A stretch of DNA of 64,000 nucleotides from an uncultured Ferrovum sp. (GTDB taxonomy: Bacteria > Pseudomonadota > Gammaproteobacteria > Burkholderiales > Ferrovaceae): the NCBI GenBank assembly GCA_903867885.1, contig CAIPTD010000081.1, forward strand, positions 1 to 64,000. Reading direction: 5' to 3'. Shown here piece after piece: positions 30,259-49,073 of this stretch (positions within the stretch are counted from its first letter, which is position 1; each line of letters starts with the position of its first letter). A program made the position numbers and the translations under genes. The notes beneath the pieces were generated by a model. That model had not been told where the DNA came from. It worked only from the letters and a program-made list of their open reading frames with translations, and made no database searches.

Positions 30259-31044
30259 TTAAGGTTGGCTATGCAGTGCGCTTGCAACGAGCGCGCCAGC
30301 GACCCCTAATTGGCTCAGCTGCGATGCATGAAATTGGGCTACCCCTCCTGCTACAAAAACCTGAGTCGGCTTATCTAATTTACTGGCCTTGAGTAAGGCG
30401 GATTGGACTTGCTCAAAATCAGGCCCCGCTCCTACTCCTACTTTCGCCAAGCTCATCACAATCACTCGCTCGGGCCAATACTCAGGGTGGCTTAACCATC
30501 CAGCATCGCCGCGAAATCCCTCTGGACCAAAATCTAAAGACAACACAGAGTGTTGAGCTTGATTAGAGAGGTTCTCAAGGGCCTGCAATGTCTCTGTCCC
30601 TAATACCGGAAGCAAGGTCGAAAATCCCTCGCCCCTTTCTAAAACTGAACCTTGCAAATTCGATTCTGATGCGCCGGAAATGTTTTCTTTTTGACAATGT
30701 AACTGGATTGCGGATTGCCCACTCTCAAAACTTTCGAACCCCGCATCCAACCAAATCTCGATATCGCTAAAACGCGTAGCCAGTTGATTAATCAGTGGCC
30801 ATTGCGCCCGCTCATGCATGATGCCATCCAGATCCGCGATATAGGCTGTCTTAGCCTTGCTTCGATTCAGTAAGGCCTCTAGAACTTCTTCCGGATCGGA
30901 TCCTTGCACCAAAGGAGTTTGAATAGGTGCGTACAAATCCCGTTGTCCCGCGCGCGCATGCACCACCTGCCCGGATAAAAGATCGATCACGGGAATCACA
31001 GCTATAGGCCATTCATGCCCTTCGGCGGTAGGATGTGCAACCAT
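30259..31044 (-). CDS. HisA-like protein of the H4MPT gene set (COG1411 type)
   Basis: A (beta/alpha)8 barrel of 261 aa related to HisA (proFAR isomerase): IPVIDLLSGQVVHARAGQRD at its N-terminus, LDAGFE, LSLDFGPEGF and FVAGGV further on. Such HisA relatives travel with H4MPT-linked C1 genes and are thought to act in cofactor synthesis, but the reaction is not established to my knowledge. ATG 31044 has an excellent AGGAG five bases upstream, located inside the opposite gene. A GTG at 30999 is an alternative closer to the usual family start. Confidence 0.8.
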   Translation of the reverse strand: MVAHPTAEGHEWPIAVIPVIDLLSGQVVHARAGQRDLYAPIQTPLVQGSDPEEVLEALLNRSKAKTAYIADLDGIMHERAQWPLINQLATRFSDIEIWLDAGFESFESGQSAIQLHCQKENISGASESNLQGSVLERGEGFSTLLPVLGTETLQALENLSNQAQHSVLSLDFGPEGFRGDAGWLSHPEYWPERVIVMSLAKVGVGAGPDFEQVQSALLKASKLDKPTQVFVAGGVAQFHASQLSQLGVAGALVASALHSQP

Positions 31045-32008
31045 GAAACTCCTGATACTTGAATATGTAACGGCTGGCGGATTAGGGGATCCGGTTGGAT
31101 CCCCACTTCTTGAGGAAGCTGATGCGATGGCACTCGCCTTAGCTCGCGATTTTAGCGAGTTATCGGAGTACACGGTCTCATTACTTCGCTACCCACATCT
31201 AGTGCTGCCTCCTTCAAGCCCCATTCACATCCTTCCCTCAACAGGCGTGTTGGGCGAATGGGAGCAGGCCTTGTTAGCGCATGACCAAGTCCTCATCGTA
31301 GCGCCTGAAACGGATTCAATACTTTTGAATTGGTGCGCGCGCGCAGACAAAATAGGAATCAAAAGATTGGGTGCCAGCCTAGCAGCACTGACCATCGCAA
31401 GCGATAAATGGCAGACTGCACAGCATTTGCAACATCACTCTATTGCTCATGTCCCAACGTATCGACTCGATACTTCTGTTCCATGGTATGACCATGATGG
31501 TGCATGGGTACTCAAACCCTGCGATGGATGTGGTTGTGATGGCGTTCAACGTTTTATATCTTCAGAACAAGCCCAACAAGCGATTACACAATTACCCTCT
31601 ACGCATTTGAGCCATTGGATCGCGCAACCATGGTTAGCAGGCCAAGCAGCAAGCCTCACCCTTCTAGGAAGTTCTCAAGGCGCTCAATTGCTGAGCATCA
31701 ATGAGCAAGTATTGAGTATTTCAGCAGAGGGTTATGTTTACTTAGAAACAGTTCATACCGGATCGATTAAGCAAGATTTTTCGCTTTTTGAAAACCTCAC
31801 CCAATCCATACATAATGCAATTCCTGGATTACATGGGGTATACGGAATTGATATCCTCATCCAAGATCACCTACTTACCGTTGTTGAAATCAATCCTCGT
31901 GTCACCAGCGCCTATCCTGGACTAAGAGTCGCATTGGGCACAAACCCCGCTACACTGTGGGTTCAGAGTCTGGGCTTTCCTATACCAACTTCAAACTCAT
32001 CTTTTTAA
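31043..32008 (+). CDS. ATP-grasp protein of the H4MPT gene set (COG1821 type)
   Basis: 321 aa, ATP-grasp fold: a pre-ATP domain starting MKLLILEYVTAGGLGDPV, a glycine loop WVLKPCDGCGCDGVQRF (about 156-172) and a metal-binding VVEINPRVTSAYPG near residue 281. Likely an ATP-dependent ligase in methanopterin or methanofuran-analogue synthesis (inference from context). Its ATG overlaps the divergent HisA-like start codon (CATG at 31042-31045); TAGGA at 31029-31033 is the ribosome binding site. Confidence 0.82.
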   Translation: MKLLILEYVTAGGLGDPVGSPLLEEADAMALALARDFSELSEYTVSLLRYPHLVLPPSSPIHILPSTGVLGEWEQALLAHDQVLIVAPETDSILLNWCARADKIGIKRLGASLAALTIASDKWQTAQHLQHHSIAHVPTYRLDTSVPWYDHDGAWVLKPCDGCGCDGVQRFISSEQAQQAITQLPSTHLSHWIAQPWLAGQAASLTLLGSSQGAQLLSINEQVLSISAEGYVYLETVHTGSIKQDFSLFENLTQSIHNAIPGLHGVYGIDILIQDHLLTVVEINPRVTSAYPGLRVALGTNPATLWVQSLGFPIPTSNSSF

Positions 32009-32059
32009 ACCATTCCATTTTTTTCACTGCATAGACTGACTATTTCAGCAATCTTTAAC

Positions 32060-33253
32060 ATGCAAACCTCATCCGCCCGCCAAGATTCTATATTTCCTTT
32101 TACTTTGGGCTGGGATATCGGCGGGGCGCATTTAAAAATTGCTGTACTGAATCAAACGGGACAACTCATTGGTGTAGAGCAATATCCCTGTGCGCTCTGG
32201 AGGGGAATAGATCAACTCACGCCCTTAATCACACAAATACTCAACAAGTGGACTCCCGTCGCGCAGCATGCCGTCACGATGAGCGGCGAGATGGTCGATC
32301 TTTTTACTGATCGCATCTCAGGCGTCAAAACCTTACTGCACACCTTTGCAAAACACGTCGGTGAGATTCCTGTTCAGGTGTTCTGTGCGAAGCACGGATT
32401 TATTTCTTTGAAGGAGCTTGAAGGGTATGAAGCAGACATTGCTTCAGCTAATTGGCTGGCCTCAGCAACTTGGGCTGCGCAACATTTTGAATACGGAATC
32501 TTTCTTGATATTGGCAGCACCACAACCGATGTATTGTATTTTGAAGGTGGACGGCCTGCTCCTACTTCGATTGGCGATGCCGATCGACTGATCAGCGAGG
32601 AACTGGTTTATACCGGTGTTACACGTACCCCTTTGATGGCCTTGGCGCAGCGCATTACTTGGCGTGGTGAAACGCGTGGGGTGATGGCTGAACTCTTCGC
32701 CACCACGGCAGATGTATATCGCATTCTGGGAACATTGCCTGACGATGCCGACCAACATGATGCGGTTGATGGTGGGGAGAAAACGCGCTCTGCCAGTATT
32801 TCGCGGATGGCGAGAATGATAGGGCTGGATGGACATGAGTATGAGGATGCTGCATGGTTAGAACTCGCAGGAATTTGGCAGTCAATTCAGCAAGCGCACA
32901 TTCAAGCAGCTTTACATCGCGTTCAGCAAAGGCTGCTGACCTCACCCACCGTCTCTGTCCATGACGCCTCAGCTTACCCTTCGCCTTCTCTTTCCTTTGC
33001 TTCATCAGCAGGTATATCTGCACCTACTTCAAAAAATAGCCAGCTCATTCCACTTGTCATGGCAGGTGTGGGGCGTTTCCTGGTCAGCGGCTTGATGAAT
33101 CATGAAAGTGCTCCAACAGATTTCATCACAGTTGAATTTGGCGCATTGGGAAACCTGATCCATCCAGATCATCACAATCCTATGCTTGCGGACTATGCCA
33201 GTCGATGTGCTCCTGCCGTTGCAGTTGCTGCACTCTTATTCAGACCCAAATAA
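32060..33253 (+). CDS. H4MPT-linked C1 pathway protein, hydantoinase/ASKHA-like (COG1548 type)
   Basis: 397 aa with two actin-like ATPase signatures: GWDIGGAHLKIAV (about 18-30) and DIGSTTTDVLYF (about 150-161). This is the family annotated as probable H4MPT-linked C1 transfer pathway protein; homologues exist in methanogens. The biochemical step is not firmly known to me. It follows the ATP-grasp gene by 51 bases on the same strand and ends at a shared terminator with fae. Confidence 0.88.
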   Translation: MQTSSARQDSIFPFTLGWDIGGAHLKIAVLNQTGQLIGVEQYPCALWRGIDQLTPLITQILNKWTPVAQHAVTMSGEMVDLFTDRISGVKTLLHTFAKHVGEIPVQVFCAKHGFISLKELEGYEADIASANWLASATWAAQHFEYGIFLDIGSTTTDVLYFEGGRPAPTSIGDADRLISEELVYTGVTRTPLMALAQRITWRGETRGVMAELFATTADVYRILGTLPDDADQHDAVDGGEKTRSASISRMARMIGLDGHEYEDAAWLELAGIWQSIQQAHIQAALHRVQQRLLTSPTVSVHDASAYPSPSLSFASSAGISAPTSKNSQLIPLVMAGVGRFLVSGLMNHESAPTDFITVEFGALGNLIHPDHHNPMLADYASRCAPAVAVAALLFRPK

Positions 33254-33306: not shown

Positions 33307-33816
33307 TCAGTGTGCTGCAAAGGGGTGAGCAGTGGTGCCTTTCTTTGCAACAACATCAGCTGCAGTGGGCAGACCAGCAACAGCGCGCTGGATTGACTCA
33401 CGAGTAGCTTTGTAGTTGTAGTCCTGGATCTTAGCGTCGTCAGCTGCTTCCCAGTGAATGAATACACCAACGCAGATGAAGATGTCGTTGGCTTCAGCCA
33501 AAGGAATGGTGCCATCTTCAACGCTGTCAGCAACAGCCATTGCAACGCCACGCTGTGCGGGGCCAAACATCTGAACAGCTTGCTTAGCGCCTTTGATCGT
33601 GACTTTGTTGAACATCACGGTGTTGGGCTTAACAGGCAGGTTAGGAGCAACAACAGCTAGCAAGGAGGTGAAGCCATCCTTATTGTTGACCAATGCGTTG
33701 CAGAATGCTGACTCAGCGGCAGAACCGCGTGGGCCTAGGATCAAGTCAATGTGAGCAACTTCGTTGCCATCACCAACCAGGGACTCACCAACCATTACAT
33801 GATTAATCTTTGACAT
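33307..33816 (-). CDS. fae: Formaldehyde-activating enzyme
   Basis: Condenses formaldehyde with tetrahydromethanopterin to methylene-H4MPT in the cytoplasm; the entry point of the pathway. 169 aa, normal length, with the highly conserved [17 protein letters not shown] segment; His22 lies in the position of the catalytic histidine. It is last in the minus-strand H4MPT unit and is preceded by a 139-base gap, so it may also have its own promoter, which would fit the high expression usual for Fae. GGAG lies eight bases before ATG. Confidence 0.97.
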
Positions 33817-33955
33817 GTTTCCATCTCCATTAACAGACTTCTTATTTAAACTTGTGGGGAGAGCCCACTTCTCTTTTTCAGCAAATCCCTTTCGGGCCCC
33901 GCCAAAAACCTAGGCTAATCTCTTTCAAGACCAGCAATATCAGAAGGCTCGACGG

Positions 33956-34828
33956 CTAATGCCGCGTGCCATTATAACTGTTTGCATCGACTAATCGCAT
34001 TATCAAAATGCTTGCTACAACTAAATCTGCACTCGTTCCTGGGTTTATTTTGTTTTCACGCCAGCGACGATGAATTTGTAACAAATCTGGCCAGACTTCT
34101 GCTGCGTTGCCGCAAATTTCCCACTGTTCCAATACATGTCGTGCTTCATCTTGAGTCGCTTGTGCTACTGCCAATCCATGACGTCGTGATACATGCGTAT
34201 CTGGTTGATTTGCAACAAAATCAAGGTAACAGCGGGTAATAGCCCACAATTCTGCCTCGCCTTTTTCTTTGGAGCGCATTAAAGACTGAACCCCCATCCC
34301 AAACACCCCAGAATAATCTTGCGTATATTCTTGTGCGATCTGATCCCTGTTTGCCGCTAATCGCATGACTTCAAATAAGTTAATACTAGGCTCACACTGA
34401 ACGTCTTGCTCTTTACTCGCGCCCAAACCGCCGGGCGCAGCTAAGCGAATGGCGCGATAACAGGCCTGCGCATCTTCTATAGACAGTTCAGTTAATTCCA
34501 TATGCAATGCTTTTTGTAGCGAATCTAGAGTGAGATCCTCTCTCAGTCGTTCGAGCGCCCTCAACACAGGTGCAAACAGCAACACAATACCCAGATTCGT
34601 ATTACAAGAGACCACGCGGTGTGTCGCCTCTACAGAAAATTCTATCCTCTGGCCTACTGAGTAAGCTGATTGGGTGATAGGAGAAATGATGGCCTCCGCG
34701 CTTTTCACAAAGTCTGTAGCATTCATATCATGCATCGGAAACCCAATACTCACATTGCCAGGCTTAAATGCCCGTATATCCTGTGTACAGGCATCCATTA
34801 CAGCGGTTTGTAAGCGCGATTGATCCAT
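33956..34828 (-). CDS. CitG/MdcB-like triphosphoribosyl-dephospho-CoA synthase family protein
   Basis: 290 aa, CitG family: KPGNVS near residue 23, GGLGASKEQDV and the HVSRRHG and INPGTSADLVVASI motifs. Classical members build the prosthetic group precursor of citrate lyase or malonate decarboxylase from dephospho-CoA and ATP. No lyase genes are present; members of this family occur regularly in H4MPT islands, so a role in forming a ribosyl linkage of H4MPT or the methanofuran analogue is likely (inference). It overlaps the RimK-like stop by one base (TAATG). Confidence 0.85.
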   Translation of the reverse strand: MDQSRLQTAVMDACTQDIRAFKPGNVSIGFPMHDMNATDFVKSAEAIISPITQSAYSVGQRIEFSVEATHRVVSCNTNLGIVLLFAPVLRALERLREDLTLDSLQKALHMELTELSIEDAQACYRAIRLAAPGGLGASKEQDVQCEPSINLFEVMRLAANRDQIAQEYTQDYSGVFGMGVQSLMRSKEKGEAELWAITRCYLDFVANQPDTHVSRRHGLAVAQATQDEARHVLEQWEICGNAAEVWPDLLQIHRRWRENKINPGTSADLVVASILIMRLVDANSYNGTRH

Positions 34829-35802
34829 TAGTGCAGCGTCTCCTCAGAGGAGCGATGATCAGATGGATAGAGTTGAGAAGCAAGCGGATGCCGTAAAGTA
34901 GCGGCGGGCATCACACAGCGATTGAGAAAATCAGCGATGAGACGGTCGGCAATACGATGAGGCGTGACGGATTGCAAGCCATACCAAGCCGGAACGCTAT
35001 TGACTTCTAAGATTTGAAGATGGCCGTCTTGCCCGCGAATCAGGTCTACGCCGGCATAGTCCATTTCAAGTACCTCAACTGCGCGCTCTGCAAGGAGTTC
35101 TAAATCACCTGTTGGAATGATTGATTCACAGCGAGCACCTTGTGCGACGTTGTTTATCCAGTCTTTTCCATAACGCGCCATGGCGCAATCTACCTTACCA
35201 CCAACCACAAAAACTCTGAAATCGCAGCTAATACCATTCCAGCTTGGAACAAAACGTTGTAGGTAAGCTACGCCCTTAAATACTTCAAGATCAGGCATGC
35301 TGTCTTGAGGATTGAGTTTGATGATGCCCTCACCCTGAGATCCAAAGAGAGGTTTGCATACCATGGTGTGACCTGCCGCCCACTCAAGCATCAAAATTGA
35401 TTTTATAGCCTCTGGGGTTTCGCATACCCAAGTAGGTGGAGTGGGTAAACCCGCACGATGTAAGAGCAAACTGGTCATCCCCTTATCAACGGTTCGCTCG
35501 ATAGCTTTGGCATCGTTGTAAACGGGAACGCCGCTTTCGCGGAGAGCATGCAAGATATCCAGCCTTAAGATCACCTGTTCTAAGGAACCGCCTGGAACCC
35601 CACGAACAAACACCCCATCAGGTAATTCTGTTCCAAACTCGCCTAGATAGAGTCCCTCAGAGTGGTTAAGGTCAATGCGGCAATCTTGCAAACGCAGATA
35701 GCGTGCATCTATCCCGTAGGCCAACATAGACTTCAACAATTGCCGTCCATGCCAACCCGGGTCGTCGGTGACCACTGCAATCCGCAAGGGCGCAATACTC
35801 AA
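34828..35802 (-). CDS. RimK-like ATP-grasp ligase
   Basis: 324 aa, ATP-grasp of the RimK/glutamate ligase type: MVCKPLFGSQGEGI glycine loop (about 160-173), RVFVVGGKV and VDLIRGQDGHLQILEVNSVPAWYG near residues 250-275. Related archaeal ligases add glutamate to H4MPT. Here addition of glutamate to H4MPT or to the polyglutamate tail of the methanofuran analogue is a reasonable guess. Five bases after mch; overlaps the CitG-like gene. Confidence 0.86.
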   Translation of the reverse strand: MSIAPLRIAVVTDDPGWHGRQLLKSMLAYGIDARYLRLQDCRIDLNHSEGLYLGEFGTELPDGVFVRGVPGGSLEQVILRLDILHALRESGVPVYNDAKAIERTVDKGMTSLLLHRAGLPTPPTWVCETPEAIKSILMLEWAAGHTMVCKPLFGSQGEGIIKLNPQDSMPDLEVFKGVAYLQRFVPSWNGISCDFRVFVVGGKVDCAMARYGKDWINNVAQGARCESIIPTGDLELLAERAVEVLEMDYAGVDLIRGQDGHLQILEVNSVPAWYGLQSVTPHRIADRLIADFLNRCVMPAATLRHPLASQLYPSDHRSSEETLH

Positions 35803-35807
35803 GGCAC

Positions 35808-36827
35808 TCAGCTCCCAGTTCCAAAAGATTGGTAGAGCAGGGCTTCATTGATTTGCCCACCATGAAAGCTATGGCCTGTATCGAGGTTGCTTACGGTCAC
35901 CGCTGCAGGGGCAAACAACATGGGATCGATTTGGTAGAAGTCATATTTGTAGTCTTTGAAGACTTGGCCAAAGGGTTTGCCGTAGTCATTGGAATTAGAA
36001 CTTGGCAGGTGCTTTGCTAAATTCTTTGCGGCTTCATCGCTTCCCTTTACATAAAGCTGAATTTCGCCGCCATAGAGAATCGCATCGTTTGTTCTGCCCA
36101 TACCCGTTAGGAAATCTACGCCTGGTGGGGGGAGGGGAGCCGTGCCGCGACCATCGATGATGTGGCTTAAATTGAAGCCCAGCGCATGAGCTTTATGCAT
36201 CGCCACTTCTAACACGCGAGCCACCACTTGAAGGTTACCGGCCAAACTGCGCGTGGGGGTGAGGATAAAGACCAATTGTTCTGGATCAAGTTGGGTGTCG
36301 CGTGCCACTTTTGCAATCACTTCGGCGGGGGGGTGACGATCTACTTCCAGCACTAAGGTGGTTCTATCAAGGGCAGTATCGGTATAGCCTAGCTCTGCAA
36401 AGAGTGGCTCTTTGAGGGCGATGCTGCGAGCGGGCCCCGATCCTAAAGCATGAAAAGCCTCTTTCCCTTCTCCTGCGGATAGGCTCCATCCTGCATATTG
36501 ACTTCCCAGGCATGCAAGTATTGGTTCAAAACTCCCTACTGAAAGACGCAGGCGGCTGGGACCGCAGCTAGGTTCGATATCAACGGTACCTAGTCCACCC
36601 ATGCAAATTTCTGCGATTAATCTTCCGGCTTCTAGCCCCCCTGGGGCTTCAATACCCGCGTCAACAATAGTAGAACCTTCTGGTGATTGGCTGACTTTTA
36701 CGCGCAGCAGATCAGCTTCTTCGATCAAACTGTCTACTAGGGATGCAACGTGTTCTTGAATGCTTAAAGGATGATTGGCGTAATGACTGGCGTGAGGGGC
36801 TGAAGTCGTGCTGTGATCTTGGCTCAT
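35808..36827 (-). CDS. mch: Methenyl-H4MPT cyclohydrolase
   Basis: Hydrolyses methenyl-H4MPT to N5-formyl-H4MPT. 339 aa with the family segments VDAGIEAPGGLEAGR, IEPSCGPSRLRL and the GRTNDAILYGGE region. I choose ATG 36827 (AGGA seven bases upstream) instead of a start 29 codons earlier, which adds a segment without family features. A 130-base gap with two hairpins separates it from the upstream ATP-grasp gene. Confidence 0.96.
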   Translation of the reverse strand: MSQDHSTTSAPHASHYANHPLSIQEHVASLVDSLIEEADLLRVKVSQSPEGSTIVDAGIEAPGGLEAGRLIAEICMGGLGTVDIEPSCGPSRLRLSVGSFEPILACLGSQYAGWSLSAGEGKEAFHALGSGPARSIALKEPLFAELGYTDTALDRTTLVLEVDRHPPAEVIAKVARDTQLDPEQLVFILTPTRSLAGNLQVVARVLEVAMHKAHALGFNLSHIIDGRGTAPLPPPGVDFLTGMGRTNDAILYGGEIQLYVKGSDEAAKNLAKHLPSSNSNDYGKPFGQVFKDYKYDFYQIDPMLFAPAAVTVSNLDTGHSFHGGQINEALLYQSFGTGS

Positions 36828-36915
36828 TATGTTTTCCTTTGTATGTGGCGCCCCATTTCTTATGGATGCACGCATACCACATGGCATCTCGAATTCATTG
36901 GGACTGATAGGCACC

Positions 36916-36936
36916 AGATGTTCAAGATGAACATCT
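36916..36936. repeat. Perfect 8-bp dyad upstream of mch
   Basis: AGATGTTC (36916-36923), five-base spacer, GAACATCT (36929-36936). A second short hairpin CCGGC/GCCGG lies at 36941-36955 directly after the ATP-grasp stop. Together they could be an operator, an mRNA processing site or a weak attenuator in the operon; no T-run follows. Confidence 0.6.
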
Positions 36937-36957
36937 CGTTCCGGCCTTTCGCCGGGC

Positions 36958-38277
36958 TCAAAGGTAATAGAGCAAGTCCTCTCCAGCCACGGGGTTCAGG
37001 CATTCCCGCAGAGCCTTCACTTGCGCTCTGAGCTTTCCTAGCCCCCCATCTGAAATAACGATACTGCAAATCGGTTCACCCGCTTGAAATGTGCGGGGTA
37101 AGATTGGCAAGTCATGACAGCCTGAGGGAAATTGGAAATCGGCTGGAATCGACAACAGGGCACTAGCATAAACGATTGCCATCCCCCTGTTCAAGAGATT
37201 GTGAGAGGCTGGCCACAAAGTGTTGCGATTAGCATGAAAATGAGCGCTATTTAAAGCATCTAAGCCAATGATTGTGTTGAAGTTTGGTAATAAAGGGGTA
37301 GGTTTCGCAGCTCTTAGGCAAGAAATGAGATGCGCCTCAAAGAGTGGGGCTAGAAGAGCGTTGGGGTAAAGGGCAAGGCTGGCAGGGGGCCTGGGATTGA
37401 TTTCGAGCAGCCACAAGGTTGCACCATCCCAGATCGCATCTAGGCCATTGAGCCCTACTAAGCCAAATTGACGACAAATTGAATGGCAAGCGTTTGCAAG
37501 TGATATGCATGCTGGCTCTGGAATATCGGCATCTACTACCAAGCCCCCAAATCTAAATGGCCTTTCTGATGAGGGGGCAAGATACTGCCTATGTATAGAC
37601 AGGACAACGCACTCAGGGCCGTTTAAAAAAAGCGCTGAAAGGGCAATGCCCTCAACATATTGTTGGGCATAAAACGGTGCTTTAAGTTGGATCGCCTCGT
37701 CGAATGAAACAACTTCGATGTGTGCGCCACCTGAGGCGCCCATCGTTTTTTTGAGCCACTGCGGGATCGCCTTGCGCGAAGGGGAATTGCGCGAAGGGGA
37801 ATTGCATGAAGTGGTATCTGTTGCTTCATCACTGTTGTCGGCGTTGGATTGCCTATCCCTTAGATGAGAGAAGGGTGGCAATAAAGCTGGGGTGGATAAA
37901 CCAAGCTGCAGACATCTCCGATAAAACACTACGGGATCTTTGCAGCATGTCACGCACTGTGCTTGATTTCCTAGTATCCCGCCTAGCAGATTGAGCTTAT
38001 CGAGTGTATCAGGTGAGGATTCAAATCCGGTTGTAGTGACAACCAAACCTGATGGATTAAGCGCTTTCCAGTCTTGAACAAGCGGTATGAGTGCTGAGTG
38101 AGCGGGTAAAAAAGGGGCTTCTTTTGTGTCGGGCACCAGGCCAACATACCGCGCAGCCAGACGTGTATCCATGTCGCCAAAGCAATCGAATACATCAACG
38201 GTATACCCTGCTTGTTTGAGGGCCTGTGCTGCGATTCGACCACTGCTACCAACCACCAAGATCGGTGCAGCAGTCAA
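36958..38277 (-). CDS. ATP-grasp protein of the H4MPT gene set (COG2232 type)
   Basis: 439 aa. An N-terminal Rossmann-like part (ILVVGSSGRIAAQALKQAGY) is followed by an ATP-grasp domain with KKTMGASGGAHI (about 178-189), GLNGLDAIWDG and LLEINPRPPASLALY (about 295-309). Related to carboligases near biotin carboxylase; present in most H4MPT islands with unknown step. A Ser/Asn/Asp-rich insert (about 143-172) carries a 15-base tandem repeat. It begins 16 bases after the mtdB stop. Confidence 0.83.
   Translation of the reverse strand: MTAAPILVVGSSGRIAAQALKQAGYTVDVFDCFGDMDTRLAARYVGLVPDTKEAPFLPAHSALIPLVQDWKALNPSGLVVTTTGFESSPDTLDKLNLLGGILGNQAQCVTCCKDPVVFYRRCLQLGLSTPALLPPFSHLRDRQSNADNSDEATDTTSCNSPSRNSPSRKAIPQWLKKTMGASGGAHIEVVSFDEAIQLKAPFYAQQYVEGIALSALFLNGPECVVLSIHRQYLAPSSERPFRFGGLVVDADIPEPACISLANACHSICRQFGLVGLNGLDAIWDGATLWLLEINPRPPASLALYPNALLAPLFEAHLISCLRAAKPTPLLPNFNTIIGLDALNSAHFHANRNTLWPASHNLLNRGMAIVYASALLSIPADFQFPSGCHDLPILPRTFQAGEPICSIVISDGGLGKLRAQVKALRECLNPVAGEDLLYYL
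37772..37801 (-). repeat. Two 15-bp tandem repeats inside the COG2232-type gene
   Basis: TTGCGCGAAGGGGAA occurs twice in a row (37772-37786, 37787-37801), with the start of a third diverged copy. In the protein it gives NSPSR repeated. In frame, so only lengthens a low-complexity linker. Confidence 0.9.
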
Positions 38278-38293
38278 TCGGGATTGAGCCAGG

Positions 38294-39202
38294 TTAGAGC
38301 TCAGCTACCCGCTCCCGGGCAAACTGGAAGGCGTCACGGAAATCTAGATAGACCGGCTTATCAGAATTCAACATGCGCTCAAACATGCCATGCATCACTT
38401 GGTATTTGATGTTACCCACAGCTAAGGGGCCAATTCCAACAGCATGACCTGAGCCAGAGGGCATTGGAACGCCTTGATCGGTAAGCGAGATTCCGGCGAT
38501 GCCTGCAGGAGGAACCGCATTCAAATCAGCAGCAACTTTAAGGTGCTTGCACCCTTCTAATTGTTTGGCTGAGGCCACTTGTACTCCGGCCTTTGCTGCG
38601 CCCAATACGATCTCTGCACTTTCAAGTAATTCTTCAATTTTAGCGACGTCGCTCATATCAGCGGCTTCGGTGTTTGCACCGTAATGGGCATTGATGGTTT
38701 CTGCAGCAATGCGGGCCCTAGCCAAACCCGCATGCGAGGCCACGCGCACCCTTGCACCTGCAGTTGACGCCAAGACCGCAGCTGCAGAACCTACTGGGCC
38801 TGTGCCGCCAAGCAATACCACATCACGTCCTTCTAATTCCTGATTGAAATGCTTACGCAGCTGATGTTCAACCGAAGCCACCATTGCGGCTGCAGTGGTA
38901 AATGCGCCAGAAGGGTCGGCAAATACACTGACTTCAAACGGAGGCACCATTGCGCGCTTAACCATATCCATCATGTCATAAGCCAACCCAATATCGCGCC
39001 CACCTAAGAAAATACCCGTGCGTTTTACTCCGGTTGGGCCGCGAGAAAAAATGGCGTCTTGGGTGTAGCCGGTGACTTGATCTAATGTGATTCCGGTGTA
39101 AGGTGTGACTACCTGAAAGCCTGCGTCATACGCCATGTTAACGTCAAACGGGCTGACGTTAGGGCTGGGGGTCAACATGTGCAATATATATAGTTTTTCC
39201 AT
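38294..39202 (-). CDS. mtdB: NAD(P)-dependent methylene-H4MPT dehydrogenase
   Basis: Oxidises methylene-H4MPT to methenyl-H4MPT. 302 aa with Rossmann loop LLGGTGPVGSAAAVL (about 131-145) and the MtdA/MtdB N-terminal domain (KLYILHMLTPSPNVSPFDVNMAYDAG-like). In an H4MPT island beside mch it is taken as MtdB rather than the methylene-H4F enzyme MtdA. Between mptG and an ATP-grasp gene, all closely spaced. Confidence 0.93.
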   Translation of the reverse strand: MEKLYILHMLTPSPNVSPFDVNMAYDAGFQVVTPYTGITLDQVTGYTQDAIFSRGPTGVKRTGIFLGGRDIGLAYDMMDMVKRAMVPPFEVSVFADPSGAFTTAAAMVASVEHQLRKHFNQELEGRDVVLLGGTGPVGSAAAVLASTAGARVRVASHAGLARARIAAETINAHYGANTEAADMSDVAKIEELLESAEIVLGAAKAGVQVASAKQLEGCKHLKVAADLNAVPPAGIAGISLTDQGVPMPSGSGHAVGIGPLAVGNIKYQVMHGMFERMLNSDKPVYLDFRDAFQFARERVAEL

Positions 39203-39231
39203 GAATGGAGAGCTCGTAAAGTTAAAAAAAT

Positions 39232-40323
39232 CTACTCAGGCGCATACCATTGTGCACCTTGATGATTGGCTTCGGTGACTTCAATATGTAGCCCGGGTAA
39301 TGCAAGGTCATGCGTGCGTTGCGCCCACTCCTGAGCGGTCGTTGCATCGGGTGCGATGACAAAACCCGTTGGCCCCCAAGAACTTTGTCCTCGGCATTGC
39401 GCCCCAATAGAACCTAAAAAGTCGAGTGCCAGGCTTACTTTCTGGCTGGTAAATCGGCCGCCTTGGGCAGGCGCAAAATGGTCACCTACCGTTTCCTGTA
39501 ACTCTGTAATTGCAAGACCAAAGGGAGCTAAATCTGCTTCAGCAATGGCGGGTAGCGCACGCATCATCGTGATGTGGCAAAGCCTTGCAGCGAGCGCCTC
39601 AGGGAATACGGGAAGATGCTTAAATGCTTCGGTCTCTGCTTTACCATGCAATCCTTGATGCTCTGGATCCATCAATAAAACAATCCGCCATGCTGAAGGA
39701 AAGGCAATGCGCGCTAATAATGGCGGCGGTTCATCATTCTTACCTCTCCCGCCATCTAAAATAAATCCACCCGATTCAAATGCACCGATGCCAATACCCG
39801 AACGATTGCCGCGATCAAGCGCGGCGGCCAATTCACGGGGGCAGAGCGGCCTGCCATGCAGTTGAGACACAACGCTGCCCAACGCAAGTGCGAGCTGCGT
39901 TCCTGAACCTAAACCAGAATGGCTGGGAATCGTTCGCAGAAGTGTGATCTCTACGTTGTGATGGAAGCCAAACAAACAGGCAAGTTGGCCAAGCAGTTTT
40001 TCAATACGCGCCCGCTGTGATTCTTGTAAGTTTGAACCTACAACTTTGGTTTGGTTTGCAAGACGACCTTCTATTTGCAGAGAGGGGTTCGCAAGGCTTA
40101 CACCCACAGATCCAAAGCGTCGCCCCAGATGACCGCCCATATCCAGAAAGCCCAAATGAAGTCTTGAGGGAGCGATCAAGCCAAGTTGTAAGGCTTGTTC
40201 AGATCCGTTTTTCATGAATTCTTTAGATTGAGATCGGTTTAGTGCTGAGGATGATCCGCCGAGATCATCAGAGGAGAGCGGTGAGGAAGGATCAGTAATA
40301 GAAGTCATCATAGGGCGAATCAC
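39232..40323 (-). CDS. mptG: Beta-ribofuranosylaminobenzene 5'-phosphate synthase (GHMP fold)
   Basis: First committed step of methanopterin synthesis: 4-aminobenzoate-type substrate plus PRPP. The GHMP-kinase-like glycine loop IPSHSGLGSGTQLALALG lies near residues 135-152, and PSRLHLGFLDMGG near 52-64. The longest reading starts at GTG 40323, two bases after the exbD stop; ATG 40311 and ATG 40215 are alternatives. ATG 40215 would remove a Ser-rich stretch of 36 residues and bring the protein nearer to the usual start, so the N-terminus is uncertain. Archaeal naming is used for the symbol. Confidence 0.87.
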   Translation of the reverse strand: MIRPMMTSITDPSSPLSSDDLGGSSSALNRSQSKEFMKNGSEQALQLGLIAPSRLHLGFLDMGGHLGRRFGSVGVSLANPSLQIEGRLANQTKVVGSNLQESQRARIEKLLGQLACLFGFHHNVEITLLRTIPSHSGLGSGTQLALALGSVVSQLHGRPLCPRELAAALDRGNRSGIGIGAFESGGFILDGGRGKNDEPPPLLARIAFPSAWRIVLLMDPEHQGLHGKAETEAFKHLPVFPEALAARLCHITMMRALPAIAEADLAPFGLAITELQETVGDHFAPAQGGRFTSQKVSLALDFLGSIGAQCRGQSSWGPTGFVIAPDATTAQEWAQRTHDLALPGLHIEVTEANHQGAQWYAPE

Positions 40324-40325
40324 AA

Positions 40326-40754
40326 TTAGCGGACGGCGTCCATAAATTGCTCATTACCGGTGAGCCCAATTTTACTTATTCCTATTCTTTGGGCTGCGGC
40401 TAACACCCTGGCTACATGCTCATAGGCCACATCTTTATTCGGTCTAAGATGGACTTCATCTTGATCTGACTGTTGTGAAACCACCTTGAACTTAGTTTCA
40501 ACTGCGGCTTGATCATCGAGTAATTGACCGTTCCAGAATATCTGACCACGTGCATCGATATCTAATGTCACCACTACGGGATCATGATGCACAGGTGGCG
40601 CGCCTTGGGGCATGTTGAGCTTTACAGCGTGGGTTTGAATGGGGATGGTGATAATCAGCATCACCAAGAGCACGAGCATCACGTCAATCAGGGGCGTGGT
40701 ATTGATTTCCATCAATACCTCATCTTCTTTTTGAGAACCGGTATTCATTGCCAT
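40326..40754 (-). CDS. exbD: Biopolymer transport protein ExbD (copy 1)
   Basis: 142 aa bitopic inner-membrane protein; Asp in NTTPLIDVMLVLLVM is the proton-path residue of ExbD/TolR proteins, followed by a periplasmic domain. Works with ExbB to energise TonB. Third in tonB-exbB-exbD-exbD; AAAGGAA precedes the ATG. Its stop is almost fused to mptG, tying the TonB genes to the H4MPT unit. Confidence 0.92.
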   Translation of the reverse strand: MAMNTGSQKEDEVLMEINTTPLIDVMLVLLVMLIITIPIQTHAVKLNMPQGAPPVHHDPVVVTLDIDARGQIFWNGQLLDDQAAVETKFKVVSQQSDQDEVHLRPNKDVAYEHVARVLAAAQRIGISKIGLTGNEQFMDAVR

Positions 40755-40780
40755 GCTTGGATTCCTTTGGGTCTGAGCGA

Positions 40781-41233
40781 TTAGGGACTAGAGCGCACAG
40801 GCGGTTCGGTAATGAAGCCCACTTTGCCAATCCCCGCTTGTTGGCAGGCGACCACCACTTTGCCTATGGCTTCATAACGTGTTTTTTGATCACCCCGAAT
40901 ATGCACCTCGGGCTGTGGTTTTTTGACTGCCTCAACTTTGAGTTTTTCTACCAGATCGCGGTGACTTGTGATGGGGTTTTGATTCCAGAATACATCCCCG
41001 TTTTCAGTTACTGATAACAAAATATTATCTGGATTGGTTTGAGTTGGGGTGTTCACCTCTTTGGGTAACTTAACCGGAATGGTATGGGTTACGACTGGGA
41101 TGGTGATCAGAAAAATAATCAACAAAACAAGCATGACATCGACCAAAGGCGTGGTGTTGATCGTACTCAACACCTCATCCTCGTCTTCCTGACTTGGGTC
41201 ATTGATGCCGCGTGGACTAATAGAAAGAGACAT
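40781..41233 (-). CDS. exbD: Biopolymer transport protein ExbD (copy 2)
   Basis: 150 aa; a diverged ExbD paralogue with NTTPLVDVMLVLLIIFL as membrane helix with its Asp, and an N-terminal acidic stretch (QEDEDEV). Tandem ExbD copies are known in several Beta- and Gammaproteobacteria, where the two are not always interchangeable. Follows exbB by 14 bases. Confidence 0.92.
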   Translation of the reverse strand: MSLSISPRGINDPSQEDEDEVLSTINTTPLVDVMLVLLIIFLITIPVVTHTIPVKLPKEVNTPTQTNPDNILLSVTENGDVFWNQNPITSHRDLVEKLKVEAVKKPQPEVHIRGDQKTRYEAIGKVVVACQQAGIGKVGFITEPPVRSSP

Positions 41234-41247
41234 GCGTGCGCCTTTTC

Positions 41248-41931
41248 TTAGTCGCGTGCGCCCGGGCGCATACCTGCGATCAGAACTGAATGAACATCCG
41301 CACCGAAACTACGAACCCGTTCTAGTATGGTTTTATTGCGACGAACAAGCCAGTTGTAACCCAGCACGGCAGGAACAGCGACAGCTAAACCAATTGCGGT
41401 CATGATGAGGGCTTCGCCAACCGGGCCTGCAACCTTGTCAATAGAGGCTTGCCCAGCAATACCGATGGCGGTAAGCGCGTGATAAATACCCCAAACGGTT
41501 CCAAACAAACCAACGAAAGGGGCAGTGGAACTGACCGTAGCCAAGAATGTCAGGCCATTTTGCATGCGCCCTGCCACCAAATCCACAGCGCGTTGAATGC
41601 TCATCGTCACCCAAGTGTGGCGATCAATCGCTTCGATTAATTTGCCTTCATGATGCGCATTGGCGGATAAGCCAGATTCTGCGATGAAGCGGAAGGGACT
41701 TTCTTCGCTCAGTGCCTGAGTGCCTGCTGCAACTGAAGCTGCTGACCAAAATAATTCTCGTACCTCAGCGCTCTGCTTCATTGCTTTAGATTGCTCAATC
41801 AACTTGGTGATCAAGATATACCAAGTCCCTAGTGACATGATCACCAGTGCGATCAAGGTTCCATGGGTAACAAAGTCTCCCCCGTTCCAAAGGGCTTCCA
41901 AACCATAAGGGTTAGTTACTGTAATTTCCAT
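41248..41931 (-). CDS. exbB: Biopolymer transport protein ExbB
   Basis: MotA/TolQ/ExbB-family proton channel, 227 aa, three transmembrane helices; the conserved TAPFVGLFGTVWGIYHAL (about 137-154) and GEALIMTAIGLAVAVPAVLGYN motifs are present. ATG 41931 with a strong GGAGG is chosen over a frame extending 56 codons into tonB. TolQ at 60949-61641 is the separate Tol-system paralogue. Confidence 0.94.
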   Translation of the reverse strand: MEITVTNPYGLEALWNGGDFVTHGTLIALVIMSLGTWYILITKLIEQSKAMKQSAEVRELFWSAASVAAGTQALSEESPFRFIAESGLSANAHHEGKLIEAIDRHTWVTMSIQRAVDLVAGRMQNGLTFLATVSSTAPFVGLFGTVWGIYHALTAIGIAGQASIDKVAGPVGEALIMTAIGLAVAVPAVLGYNWLVRRNKTILERVRSFGADVHSVLIAGMRPGARD

Positions 41932-41953
41932 GACACCTCCAAAGTGTGTTGCA

Positions 41954-42643
41954 TTATTCGGCGTGGAATTCGATGACTTGATCGACTTCGAATTCGTCTT
42001 CACCTTTTTCAAAACGGAATTTTTGCACGTACTCGCTTGCCGCACGATCAAAAATTTTCTTGGGTTGCGCATCGCGCACAACCACATTGATGACTTCACC
42101 TGCGGGACTAATGGTTAATCGCAGCGAGACCCGACCGCTGATTCCTTCGCGGCGAGCGCGAGGGGGGTAGTTGGTGAGCAGTTCTTCAACAGGGGGGCGA
42201 TAGATGGGGTTCACGCCTGCCCGGAGTCGGGGCTTAGGTGCAGCAGGTGCTGGCTTAGCATTGATGACCTCAGCGGGTTTTTGAATGGACAAGGGGGCTT
42301 GCTCTGGTGCTTTTTCGGCTACCACAGCAGTGATAGTGTTTTGGGCAGGCACTGGGGTTTGTAACTTGATCTCGGGGGGTGGCACAAACGCGGGAGGAGG
42401 TGCAACAGGTTTGGCAGGCGGGGTTTGGGGTGGAGTCGGAGGGGTTGGGGGCAAGGGCGGGGGCGGTTTGAGTGCCTCAATGATGGTGGCCTCAACGGGA
42501 GGACGAATTACCTCAATGACTTTGCGACCTAGTCCAGACACCAATCCATAAACCAATAAGATGTGAAGAAGGGCCGCAATGACAAGCGCTGCTGTGCGCC
42601 TTGCGTTTGGTTGGGTGTCCAGGTAACGATGGCTTTGCTGCAT
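41954..42643 (-). CDS. tonB: TonB energy-transducing protein
   Basis: 229 aa: N-terminal membrane anchor (about 17-38), a Pro-rich periplasmic spacer (about 55-105, PPPPLPPTPPTPP), and the C-terminal TonB domain with YPPRARREGISGRV (about 150-163). Transmits proton motive force to outer-membrane receptors for metal chelates or vitamins. It is the first gene of the minus-strand unit; no TonB-dependent receptor lies in the window, so the cargo is unknown. Confidence 0.93.
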   Translation of the reverse strand: MQQSHRYLDTQPNARRTAALVIAALLHILLVYGLVSGLGRKVIEVIRPPVEATIIEALKPPPPLPPTPPTPPQTPPAKPVAPPPAFVPPPEIKLQTPVPAQNTITAVVAEKAPEQAPLSIQKPAEVINAKPAPAAPKPRLRAGVNPIYRPPVEELLTNYPPRARREGISGRVSLRLTISPAGEVINVVVRDAQPKKIFDRAASEYVQKFRFEKGEDEFEVDQVIEFHAE

Positions 42644-42699: not shown

Positions 42700-42832
42700 T
42701 CCTTATATTGAAGCCTGACACCCCGAGTAAAGTGACTGTGCAACTGAGTTCAGTGGATCGTGATCCGCAATAAATTTGAAATTCCCCTGCCGCTGCGAGT
42801 ATGGTGCGCTTATAAAATTGTTTGGAGTCTTC

Positions 42833-44158
42833 ATGGCAACCGCTTCTTTAACTGATATTGCATGCCCTTTTTGTGGACTTGCTTGCGATGATTTAAGCTT
42901 GAATGAATCATCTGGAACACTCACCGCATCGGGAGGTGCCTGTTCCCGCGCGCAGTCCGTCTTTCAAAAAATTGGATCTGTTCGGTCGGACGCAGCTTCT
43001 AGTTGGATTGACGGCAAACCCGTTACCTTAGAGCAGGCTATGACCAAAGCCATTGAACTGATCGCCTCAGCTCAAGCACCTTTATTTGGGGGGTTGGCTA
43101 CGGATGTATTGGGCATGCGCGGTTTGATGGAGCTTGCTGATCGTACCGGTGCCATCCTTGATCATATGAATTCAGAGTCTAAGCTCAGAAATTTGCGAAC
43201 AGTACAGGATGCCGGTTGGATCACCACTACCCTGTCTGAGGTTCGCAATCGTGCAGATGTGATTGTGTGTTTTGGTACGGATGTCTCCTCCCGCTTCCCC
43301 CGTTTTTTTGAGCGTTGCGTATGGGTTGAAAAGCCTATGTTTTTGGAAGACAGCGAACATCGCCAAGTCATCCTCATCGGTGAGCCAAAAAATTTAGCTT
43401 CAGCAATCTCACCTAAAGGGCAGCAGCCCGAGGTCATTGCTATTGCTCAGGATCGCTTAGCTGAAGCCGCAGCCTTGATGCGGGGATTAGTAGCAGGCTC
43501 ATTACCGAACAAGATTAAAACCGATCTTCCTTTTGAAGCACTACAAAGCGTGGCAGAACGTCTTCAAGCGGCACACTATGGTGTGATTGTCTGGGCAGCG
43601 GCAGATTTGGATTGGTCCCACGCGGAGCTCACCATTCAGGCCCTGACTGCCATGATTGGAACACTGAATAACACCACGCGCTGTGCAGGAATGCCCTTGG
43701 GTGGTTCGGACGGAGACTTTTCAAGCGATGCCGTCATGCTCTGGCAATCTGGTTACCCCTTCCGCACGAGTCTTGCATCCGGAACAAGCCAATATGATCC
43801 CGTGATGCACTCTACTGAACGTATTGTGGCAGAGGGCGAAACAGATTGTGTTTTGTGGGTGGCAGGCTTAGATCCTGATCGAATACAAGTGCCCAATTTG
43901 CGTGCGGTCACCTCACGTCACTCAGCATCTGCTAAAGGATGTCCAATGATTGCGCTGACTTCAGCAGGGGCTGATCTGGTTTCTGAAGCTGCGGTTCAAA
44001 TCACCGTGGCCACCCCAGGAGTGGATACCCATGGTTACCTATTCCGAGCAGACAAAGTGGTCACACTTCCGCTGCGTAAAGCCATTCAACGTTCATACCC
44101 TACTGTTGCAGAGATTGCTCAGCATATTTTAGTCGGGCTGGGAGACAAAGCATGCTGA
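42833..44158 (+). CDS. fhcB: Formyltransferase/hydrolase complex subunit FhcB
   Basis: 441 aa homologue of formylmethanofuran dehydrogenase subunit B. In methylotrophs it belongs to the FhcABCD complex, which hydrolyses the formyl carrier to formate. The N-terminal CPFCGLACDDLSL cysteines are visible. I start at ATG 42833 with GGAG five bases upstream. The 189-base gap to tonB holds divergent promoters; TATAAA at 42811 is a weak -10 candidate. Overlaps fhcA by seven bases. Confidence 0.93.
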   Translation: MATASLTDIACPFCGLACDDLSLNESSGTLTASGGACSRAQSVFQKIGSVRSDAASSWIDGKPVTLEQAMTKAIELIASAQAPLFGGLATDVLGMRGLMELADRTGAILDHMNSESKLRNLRTVQDAGWITTTLSEVRNRADVIVCFGTDVSSRFPRFFERCVWVEKPMFLEDSEHRQVILIGEPKNLASAISPKGQQPEVIAIAQDRLAEAAALMRGLVAGSLPNKIKTDLPFEALQSVAERLQAAHYGVIVWAAADLDWSHAELTIQALTAMIGTLNNTTRCAGMPLGGSDGDFSSDAVMLWQSGYPFRTSLASGTSQYDPVMHSTERIVAEGETDCVLWVAGLDPDRIQVPNLRAVTSRHSASAKGCPMIALTSAGADLVSEAAVQITVATPGVDTHGYLFRADKVVTLPLRKAIQRSYPTVAEIAQHILVGLGDKAC

Positions 44159-45828
44159 CACTTCTTAAGGGCGGAAAAATCGTCGACCCAACACGCAAAC
44201 TTTCTAGCGTATCGGGTGATCTCTTCATGCGGGATGGTTGGATTGTAGAGGGCCCCAATCCCGGGGAGCGGATTGATGAAGAGATCGACATTACGGGTAG
44301 GATTGTTATGGCGGGGGCTATTGATATGCATACGCATATCGGAGGCGGTAAAGTGAATATCGCCAGGAATATGTTGCCCGAAGATCATCGCTTTGATCCT
44401 GTGCATCGGGCTGGTTTATGTCGATCAGGTTGTGGCCATGCAGCTCCCAGTACCCTAACCACGGGATATCGCTATGCTGCGATGGGCTACACAGCGGGTT
44501 TTGAGCCCGCCATGCTGCCGGTAAATGCGCGCCAGGCCCACCTGGAAATGGGCGATACTCCCATTATCGATAAGGGCGCTTATGTGATGTTGGGCAGCGA
44601 TGATTTTCTTTTGCGCTTAATGCGCGAAGGTGCCAGCCAAGAACGTATCAATGATTACGTAGGCTTTACGATTGCTTCCAGTCAAGCTTTGGGATTAAAG
44701 GTGGTGAATCCAGGCGGTATCAGTGACTTTAAATTCAACCGCCGTGCCTTGGATTTAGATGAAGCACACAGTCATTACAACGTGACTGCACGCCAGATTG
44801 TTTATACCTTGGCGCGCGCTTTGCATGAACTCAAGGTGCCGCATCCTCTGCATATTCATGCTTCAAATCTGGGTGTGCCGGGTAATTTCCAAACCACGCT
44901 CGATACGATTACGGGGGCAGAAGGCTTTCCTATTCACCTCACGCATATTCAGTTTCATAGTTATGGTACCGAGGGCGATCGTAAGTTTTCTTCTGAAGCC
45001 GCAAAGATTGCTGAGGCCATTAATAACAATCCGCACGTGAGTGCAGACGTAGGCCAAATCATGTTTGGTCAGACGGTCACTTGCTCAGGTGACAGCATGA
45101 CCCAGCATCGCAATGCAGGGTTTGGTAGTCCCAAGAAAAGCGTCATTATGGATATCGAATGCGATGCAGGTTGTGGGGTCGTACCCTTCAAATACAAAGA
45201 TAAAAACTTTGTGAATGCCTTGCAGTGGGCTGTTGGCTTGGAAATTTTCCTGCGTGTAGAAGACCCATGGAGAATTTTCTTAACGACCGATCATCCTAAC
45301 GGTGCTCCATTTACGAGTTACCCCCACTTGATTCGTTTGTTGATGGATAAAACTTTCCGTAACGATGCACTATCACGAATTAATCCTGATGCTGCAGCCA
45401 TGAGCACATTGGACTCGATCGATCGCGAATACACCTTGGATGAAATCGCAATCATGACGCGTTCTGCTCCGGCCAAGATATTGGGTCTGAAGGATTGCGG
45501 CCATCTTGGTCCTGGTGCACGCGCCGATGTGGTCGTCTATAAAGAAGATTCGGATCCAGAGAAAATGTTTACCGCTCCTGAATACGTATTTAAGAATGGC
45601 ACGATGGTCGCCAAGAATGGCGATATTGTGGCCGTGACCTGGGGGGATGTGCATGTGGTGAAACCCCAGTTTGATCGCAGTATTGAAAAACCCTTAGGCG
45701 AGTATTTCGATCGCCACCTCACTCAGAAGCTCGGTAATTTCAAAATTTCAGATGATGAGATTCGCGATATCACCAATGGCGGGGGACTGCGTGTCCATGC
45801 TTGTGAGCGTGATGGGAGAACAGTATGA
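44152..45828 (+). CDS. fhcA: Formyltransferase/hydrolase complex subunit FhcA
   Basis: 558 aa amidohydrolase-fold subunit that hydrolyses formyl-methanofuran-type carrier to formate. The metal-binding MHTHIGGGKVN (about residues 62-72) and further His residues in IHASNLGVPG and LTHIQFHSYG are in place, as is TTDHPNGAPFTSYP. Overlaps both neighbours, so fhcB-A-D-C are translationally coupled. Confidence 0.96.
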   Translation: MLTLLKGGKIVDPTRKLSSVSGDLFMRDGWIVEGPNPGERIDEEIDITGRIVMAGAIDMHTHIGGGKVNIARNMLPEDHRFDPVHRAGLCRSGCGHAAPSTLTTGYRYAAMGYTAGFEPAMLPVNARQAHLEMGDTPIIDKGAYVMLGSDDFLLRLMREGASQERINDYVGFTIASSQALGLKVVNPGGISDFKFNRRALDLDEAHSHYNVTARQIVYTLARALHELKVPHPLHIHASNLGVPGNFQTTLDTITGAEGFPIHLTHIQFHSYGTEGDRKFSSEAAKIAEAINNNPHVSADVGQIMFGQTVTCSGDSMTQHRNAGFGSPKKSVIMDIECDAGCGVVPFKYKDKNFVNALQWAVGLEIFLRVEDPWRIFLTTDHPNGAPFTSYPHLIRLLMDKTFRNDALSRINPDAAAMSTLDSIDREYTLDEIAIMTRSAPAKILGLKDCGHLGPGARADVVVYKEDSDPEKMFTAPEYVFKNGTMVAKNGDIVAVTWGDVHVVKPQFDRSIEKPLGEYFDRHLTQKLGNFKISDDEIRDITNGGGLRVHACERDGRTV

Positions 45829-49018: not shown

Positions 49019-49061
49019 TTTTTTTGGCAGATAAAGTCATATAGAGAACTTTTCCTTGGTA

Positions 49062-49073
49062 TTTAGTACTAAA
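49062..49073. repeat. 12-bp perfect palindrome upstream of SoxYZ-like gene
   Basis: TTTAGTACTAAA, in the 156-base gap before the carrier gene. A possible operator; nothing else in the gap is clear except the repeated CTCAGGA that contains the ribosome binding site. Confidence 0.4.

What the first reader, a model, noticed from the sequence alone, without database searches (positions are those of the whole stretch)
33307..42643. TonB-ExbB-ExbD-ExbD heads the H4MPT formaldehyde-oxidation unit
tonB, exbB and two exbD genes run directly into mptG (two bases from the exbD stop to the GTG start), then mtdB, ATP-grasp, mch, RimK-like, CitG-like and fae, all on one strand. Outer-membrane energised uptake thus appears co-expressed with cytoplasmic C1 cofactor and oxidation genes. 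Lanthanide or other metal uptake for a PQQ methanol dehydrogenase is an attractive explanation, but no receptor is present here.
Basis: partly seen in the sequence, partly recalled or inferred. Interest (0 to 1): 0.55.

Follow-up and report, generated by a model that had tools for sequence, protein, structure and literature searches.

The report
TonB energiser lodged in C1 island
In an uncultured relative of iron-oxidising Ferrovum bacteria, the cell's ordinary machinery for powering outer-membrane nutrient uptake sits in the middle of its formaldehyde-burning genes, and relatives that lack those genes keep the machinery at what looks like the same place, which points to an old arrangement whose methanol-related half was later lost.

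Summary
The genes are as described: tonB-exbB-exbD-exbD, then mptG-mtdB-ATP-grasp-mch-RimK-CitG-fae on one strand. The exbD-mptG junction is tight in the four genomes that have it.

In the order, mptG and fhcB usually stand back to back: 27 of 33 loci read. Only 4 carry the tonB cluster between them, from two genera of one family.

The cluster is not dedicated to C1 growth. It is the only complete TonB set found in this genome, and 13 of 19 family genomes without mptG keep its ExbB orthologue. In five of those the cluster stands between ggt and pnp, which flank the whole H4MPT island in the window. The energiser tree puts wedge copies in two separate clades, so two-sided loss of the H4MPT genes is the simpler history; a Pnp tree does not settle it.

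The lanthanide idea survives in weakened form: one XoxF, and a receptor on another contig that tends to travel with quinoproteins, which this set would have to power.

Verdict: real, conserved, probably co-transcribed, but general-purpose. Expression and metal response are untested.

The parts
41954..42643 (-). tonB (229 aa)
   Evidence: TIGR01352 52.5 bits, over cut-off; best of three TonB-domain places in the genome
41248..41931 (-). exbB
   Evidence: PF01618 109.3 bits; start at 41931
40781..41233 (-). exbD1
   Evidence: PF02472 105.4 bits
40326..40754 (-). exbD2
   Evidence: PF02472 92.6 bits
39232..40311 (-). mptG (beta-RFAP synthase family); GTG start at 40323 also possible
   Evidence: TIGR00144 177.2 bits, over cut-off; start by comparison with L002
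38294..39202 (-). mtdB (methylene-H4MPT dehydrogenase)
   Evidence: PF09176 123.7 bits
36958..38277 (-). ATP-grasp protein
   Evidence: PF02655 56 bits
35808..36827 (-). mch; a start at 36914 is possible
   Evidence: PF02289 393.5 bits
34828..35802 (-). RimK/MptN-like ligase
   Evidence: PF08443 65.6 bits; TIGR00768 158.1 over cut-off, NF040720 MptN 202.8 under its cut-off of 350
33956..34828 (-). CitG-like protein
   Evidence: PF01874 215 bits
33307..33816 (-). fae, after a 139-base gap
   Evidence: PF08714 226.8 bits
42671..42699 (-). candidate tonB promoter/operator: TATAAT (42681-42686) between inverted arms TTAGCTT and AAGCTAA
   Evidence: read from the sequence, identical in G004; not a match of the promoter scan; function untested
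42830..47542 (+). fhcB-fhcA-fhcD-fhcC, the divergent half of the H4MPT island
   Evidence: fhcD: PF02741 212 bits; fhcB: TIGR03129 269.9 bits, under its cut-off of 327.8; fhcA and fhcC named from sequence and synteny only
47568..50026 (+). Pcd-like gene (name recalled), quinoprotein-relay zinc metallohydrolase, quinoprotein-associated SoxYZ-like carrier
   Evidence: TIGR04559 322.4 and TIGR04557 277.6 bits, both over cut-off
30259..33253 (.). HisA/F-related (-), MfnD-like ATP-grasp (+) and MfnF-like / H4MPT-linked protein (+)
   Evidence: only TIGR03123 289.4 is over its cut-off; the MfnD, MfnF and HisA/F matches are below theirs
28455..30212 (+). ggt, left flank of the island
   Evidence: TIGR00066 429.7 bits, over cut-off
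50652..52796 (+). pnp, right flank of the island (an 89-aa rpsO-like ORF, name recalled, at 50214-50483)
   Evidence: tblastn to family members 78-97% and to annotated E. coli pnp 64%

Best explanation
The tonB-exbB-exbD1-exbD2 operon is the family's general-purpose TonB energiser. Early in the family it became lodged in the space between the two divergent halves of an H4MPT island (the mptG half and the fhcB half). It thereby separated mptG from its usual intergenic region, so mptG, mtdB, the ATP-grasp gene, mch, RimK and CitG are now most likely read through from the tonB promoter. ExbB/ExbD/TonB power the TonB-dependent receptors of the cell, among them one behind a cobalamin riboswitch and a quinoprotein-linked candidate for lanthanide (or PQQ) uptake on another contig. 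Several other genera of the family later lost the H4MPT genes on both sides and kept the energiser at the same ggt-pnp site. Shown here: gene content, synteny, phyletic pattern, gene trees, absence of a second complete set among the family matches. Inferred: co-transcription, direction of the history, what the receptors carry.
For: Wedge in 4 of 33 mptG loci, fhcB directly divergent in 27 of 33, neither seen in 2. Junction gaps of 1-17 bases in the four wedge genomes, G002 through a TPR gene. Only complete tonB-exbB-exbD set among the genome's matches. ExbB orthologue in 13 of 19 family genomes without mptG. ggt and pnp both flank the cluster in 5 such genomes (G006, G009, G011, G016, G020). 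In 5 of 6 H4MPT genomes the far end of the fhc half reaches pnp. In the energiser tree G008's wedge copy groups with the 8 copies from genomes without H4MPT genes (100/100), and grouping it with the g1 copies is rejected (p-AU 4.9e-12; same grouping 99/100). H4MPT proteins of the 6 family members form one clade among 33 rows (99/96). PMC13390463 places genus CAIVHB01 outside all other Ferrovaceae (Results section).
Against: No expression data. The ggt side of the island is visible only in the window, because the contigs of the other H4MPT genomes end before it, and the window's ggt is only 45-46% identical to the relatives'. The Pnp tree rooted on E. coli is unresolved, puts G008 beside g7 (87/89), and rejects neither g1+G008 (p 0.142) nor G008 with the rest (p 0.309) as a clade. 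G001 and G003, in the same genus, have no wedge. In the g4 genomes tonB lies elsewhere, and in G014 and G023 ggt adjoins pnp without tonB; the four g2 genomes show no ExbB orthologue; G015 and G021 have urease-like genes instead of ggt. These need further moves or losses.
Confidence: 0.62

Rival explanations
1. A dedicated unit: this TonB set serves lanthanide (or other C1-related) import and is co-expressed with formaldehyde oxidation for that reason.
For: XoxF at 83% identity or more occurs in the same 6 of 32 family genomes as mptG. A quinoprotein-linked receptor type is present in the genome. exbB and exbD respond to Nd in another lanthanide methylotroph (PMC10848612, passages).
Against: The cluster persists in 13 of 19 family genomes without mptG. 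G001 and G003 have XoxF and H4MPT genes but keep tonB elsewhere. No receptor or metal transporter lies in the stretch. As the only complete set it must also serve the riboswitch-controlled receptor.
Confidence: 0.12
2. The arrangement was gained, not lost around: the ancestor had ggt-tonB-pnp, and H4MPT genes came in on both sides in g1 and in G008, for instance by recombination with a relative.
For: H4MPT genes are in 6 of 32 family genomes, 2 of 8 genera. The Pnp tree does not fix the root.
Against: mptG and fhcB are adjacent in 27 of 33 loci, so entry around tonB needs a split island or two entries. G008 and g1 energiser copies are not sisters, whereas the H4MPT proteins of the family are one clade.
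Confidence: 0.18
3. Neighbours only: mptG has its own promoter inside exbD2 and the two sets are regulated separately.
For: Promoters inside upstream genes are common (general knowledge). A TPR gene separates the two in G002. G001 and G003 express mptG without tonB upstream, if they express it.
Against: Gaps of 1-17 bases in four genomes of two genera. No minus-strand promoter-like match there (weak).
Confidence: 0.2

Closest known systems
H4MPT/methanofuran-linked C1 island of methylotrophic Proteobacteria
   Same: Same genes and divergent mptG/fhcB halves as in 27 of 33 loci of the order and as annotated on an Azospirillum plasmid, where a dehydratase gene stands between them
   Different: A complete TonB energiser operon sits between the halves
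tonB-exbB-exbD1-exbD2 energiser operons with two exbD genes (the Xanthomonas example is recalled)
   Same: Same four genes in one order
   Different: Continues into C1 cofactor and oxidation genes instead of ending or leading to receptors
Lanthanide uptake by LutH and LutAEF in Methylorubrum extorquens (PMC7391723, passages read)
   Same: TonB-dependent uptake in an organism with XoxF
   Different: There the receptor and ABC transporter form the cluster, and the paper holds no exbB or exbD (0 occurrences); here the energiser is with H4MPT genes and the candidate receptor is on another contig

Membership tests
TonB-ExbB-ExbD energiser | TonB C-terminal domain, MotA/ExbB and ExbD proteins encoded together | tested here: met
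   the ExbB and ExbD proteins score below the exbB, tolQ, ExbD and tolR equivalog cut-offs of NCBIfam, so the ExbB/ExbD naming rests on Pfam and on the adjacent tonB
TonB-ExbB-ExbD energiser | Powers transport through TonB-dependent receptors | not testable with these tools
   six receptor barrel matches in the genome, one a contig-end fragment
H4MPT-linked formaldehyde oxidation pathway | fae, mtdB, mch and the fhc complex genes together | tested here: met
   fae, mtdB and mch by Pfam, fhcD by PF02741; fhcB is below its equivalog cut-off; fhcA and fhcC by sequence and synteny only
Lanthanide uptake (Lut-type) cluster | TonB-dependent receptor and ABC transporter encoded in the cluster | tested here: not met
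   none among the ORFs of the finding's stretch or its neighbours
Lanthanide uptake (Lut-type) cluster | Repression by lanthanide | not testable with these tools
   needs expression data
XoxF-type methanol dehydrogenase in the same genome | PQQ methanol/ethanol family score over cut-off and the extra Asp of the lanthanide type | tested here: met
   735.3 bits against 480.05; WDFDG; the meaning of the extra Asp is recalled, metal use not tested

The most novel reading that the evidence does not exclude
The ancestor of the Ferrovaceae was a lanthanide-dependent methylotroph in which expression of the H4MPT cofactor and oxidation genes was hard-wired to the TonB energiser. The iron-oxidising genera lost C1 metabolism, and several carry tonB between ggt and pnp as a scar. 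The genus with photosynthesis genes, CAIVHB01 ('Ca. Solisferrum'), kept the pathway and oxidises methanol, an electron source not considered in the published account, with metal import and formaldehyde oxidation on one transcript.
Probability: 0.3. Interest if true: 0.6.

Novelty: new variant of a known kind. Interest (0 to 1): 0.43.

Why it matters
It would tie outer-membrane energisation to C1 cofactor supply in one transcript and give a positional scar from which loss of a whole pathway can be read in living relatives. It would also add predicted lanthanide methanol oxidation to a lineage described as phototrophic iron and sulfur oxidisers without Calvin-cycle genes, a lack its authors say may be due to incomplete assemblies (PMC13390463, Discussion part 1). 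The main text of that paper holds none of methanol, methylo-, formaldehyde, TonB, methanopterin or lanthan-; its supplements were not seen.

Tried and rejected
Dedicated lanthanide operon: weakened by retention of the cluster in relatives without mptG. Fur control: no match to a classic Fur box with up to 3 mismatches in the window; other variants untested. Promoter and terminator scans gave about as many sites as shuffles. I considered that the TATA-like element before tonB in wedge genomes might be the mptG promoter of G001/G003; the alignment is too loose to claim it. Pnp trees: unrooted shows only that g1 is one clade; rooted on E. coli (18 family rows of the 29) is unresolved. Rfam on the window and six receptor loci: two tRNAs and one cobalamin riboswitch. 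Literature: no paper with tonB, exbB, exbD and methanopterin together; two with formaldehyde-activating enzyme and nine in a looser search, seen only as listings; other listings. The library holds open-licence papers only.

Trees: the energiser tree leaves out the four g4 rows and two of three G031 copies that are in the 22-row tree; the partial G018 copy is in neither. In one search the g4 and G031 placement is weak.

Receptor control: homologues of the C89 receptor lie on 7 of the same megaplasmids, 84-149 kb from the C146-type homologue (positions; 14 of 18 records listed in 92); the C161 receptor had no plasmid match. These plasmids are related, so the control is not independent.
Full report
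What is there. On the minus strand from 42643 down to 33307 lie tonB, exbB, exbD1, exbD2, mptG, mtdB, an ATP-grasp gene, mch, a RimK/MptN-like ligase, a CitG-like gene and fae. Gaps: tonB-exbB 22 bases, exbB-exbD1 14, exbD1-exbD2 26, exbD2-mptG 14 (2 to the GTG), mptG-mtdB 29, mtdB-ATP-grasp 16, mch-RimK 5, RimK-CitG a 1-base overlap, CitG-fae 139. The mch start is uncertain. On the plus strand, diverging from tonB, run fhcB-A-D-C, a Pcd-like gene, a quinoprotein-relay metallohydrolase and a SoxYZ-like carrier, then an rpsO-like ORF and pnp. Beyond fae lie MfnF-like, MfnD-like and HisA/F-related genes, then ggt.

Where it comes from. The window is contig C81 of a 2.19 Mb assembly, 94.39% complete. 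A named relative, an uncultured Ferrovum sp. bin, contig CAIVHB010000038.1 of 36,626 bases, matches G004:C38 of the same length, and G004 is in the window's genus. I therefore take the genus to be GTDB CAIVHB01, which PMC13390463 names 'Ca. Solisferrum' and places outside all other Ferrovaceae (Results read). This identification is an inference.

The wedge. I read 33 mptG loci: 9 from 41 relatives and 24 more from a draw of 399 genomes of the order. Of the 39 genomes with mptG, 9 gave no locus and were not examined. In 27 of 33 loci fhcB lies directly divergent from mptG. In 4 (G000, G004, G002, G008) exbD2, or in G002 a TPR gene and then exbD2, stands upstream of mptG. In 2 (L080, L094) neither was seen within the flank. 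So the cluster is a wedge in an otherwise conserved divergent pair, seen only in this family in what I read.

Who has what. All 32 family genomes held were searched: mptG in 6 (G000-G004 and G008), XoxF at 83% identity or more in the same 6. The ExbB search covered 25 family genomes: orthologues in all 6 with mptG and in 13 of 19 without. Of the other 6, G005, G012, G017 and G022 (one genus, g2) had only distant hits, G024 a distant hit in a 76% complete genome, and G013 none in a 70% complete genome.

The same site. Among the 13 without mptG, ggt adjoins exbD2 in 7 (G006, G009, G010, G011, G016, G018, G020) and pnp is the next query gene beyond tonB in 7 (G006, G009, G011, G015, G016, G020, G021); both are visible in 5. 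G047 adds another pnp-tonB neighbour. G010 and G018 have the cluster at a contig end. G015 and G021 have urease-like genes (my reading of the ORFs) on the exbD2 side. In the four g4 genomes the cluster is elsewhere, and in G014 and G023 ggt adjoins pnp. In the H4MPT genomes the SoxYZ-like gene is the next query gene before pnp in 5 of 6; G002's contig does not show it. The ggt side is visible only in the window. G001 and G003 have mptG and fhcB back to back and tonB on another contig.

History. In a tree of ExbB+ExbD1+ExbD2 (16 rows) G008's wedge copy groups with the 8 copies from genomes without H4MPT genes (100/100), which form their own clade (100/99). Holding G008 with the six g1 copies is rejected (p-AU 4.9e-12). 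The 22-row tree agrees (99/100). G002's two copies are sisters (92/90 and 84/80), and the displaced copies of G001 and G003 lie inside g1. H4MPT proteins (MptG, MtdB) of the 6 family members form one clade among 33 rows (99/96). With g1 outside the rest, as published, the wedge is on both sides of the root and loss in the other genera is simplest. Against this: Pnp rooted on E. coli puts G008 beside g7 (87/89) and rejects neither alternative (p 0.309 and 0.142), and the window's ggt is only 45-46% identical to the relatives'.

Mechanism. ExbD matches occur at four places and TonB domains at three in this genome. Besides the set here they are the Tol genes in the window (61638-62938), an ExbB/ExbD pair on C7 with no TonB match beside it, and a TonB-family protein on C145. 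About 6% of the genome may be missing. As far as can be seen the set here serves the receptors found: six barrel matches, one a contig-end fragment, including one directly behind a cobalamin riboswitch (L053). Read-through into mptG is inferred from the tight, conserved junctions. A TATAAT lies 38-43 bases upstream of the tonB ATG between inverted 7-base arms, identical in G004.

The lanthanide question. One quinoprotein is over the methanol/ethanol family cut-off; four further matches are below it. It has WDFDG, as do the G008 XoxF and the dehydrogenases of G006 and G018; the genome's two other long quinoproteins lack it (the lanthanide meaning of the second Asp is recalled). The genera are the same three of eight, but not all genomes agree: G013 has the receptor without a quinoprotein hit and G018 the reverse; both are incomplete. 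On plasmids the receptor type has 31 records, of which I read 12 distinct loci. pqqB, pqqC and pqqE lie within 12 kb in 8 of 12, homologues of the neighbouring regulator and kinase in 6, fhc genes in 4; three show none of these (L142, read with 8 kb flanks only, L149, L150). The three quinoproteins found beside such receptors have WDYDG (two) or WDFDG (one). This makes the C146 receptor a fair candidate for lanthanide or PQQ uptake. NCBIfam gives only sub-cut-off matches, best a siderophore-receptor model. It is not linked to the wedge.

Known or new. Each component is known. The combination was not met in the literature searches listed under Tried and rejected. From PMC10848612 and PMC7391723 I read passages, from PMC5020050 passages on losses of H4MPT genes in other groups, from PMC13390463 the abstract, the Results and part 1 of the Discussion.

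Noticed in passing
G000:C146 (L050:1766-7293): Response regulator, histidine kinase, beta-propeller and TonB receptor in a row; homologues of the same set lie beside pqq genes, and in four loci fhc genes, on Burkholderiaceae plasmids.
   Followed up: partly
G000:C145 (L065:8732-10618): Single XoxF-like methanol dehydrogenase in a genus described as phototrophic iron and sulfur oxidisers; it occurs in the same 6 of 32 family genomes as mptG.
   Followed up: partly
window 47942-50026: Quinoprotein-relay metallohydrolase and SoxYZ-like carrier (TIGR04559, TIGR04557) sit behind the fhc genes and stay with them in five other H4MPT genomes where the contig shows the site (metallohydrolase in all five, carrier in four).
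   Followed up: no
L023 (G002:C177) 1522-2772: A 416-aa TPR protein gene is inserted between exbD2 and mptG in G002, which also has a second tonB cluster on C101.
   Followed up: partly
L030 and L032 (G001, G003): The displaced tonB clusters stand next to a transporter-like ORF of the sugar symporter type (my reading), and in G001 a receptor-like ORF follows.
   Followed up: no
L037, L040, L043, upstream of tonB: In genomes without H4MPT genes a TATAAT-like element lies only a few bases before the apparent tonB start, as a leaderless transcript would have it.
   Followed up: no
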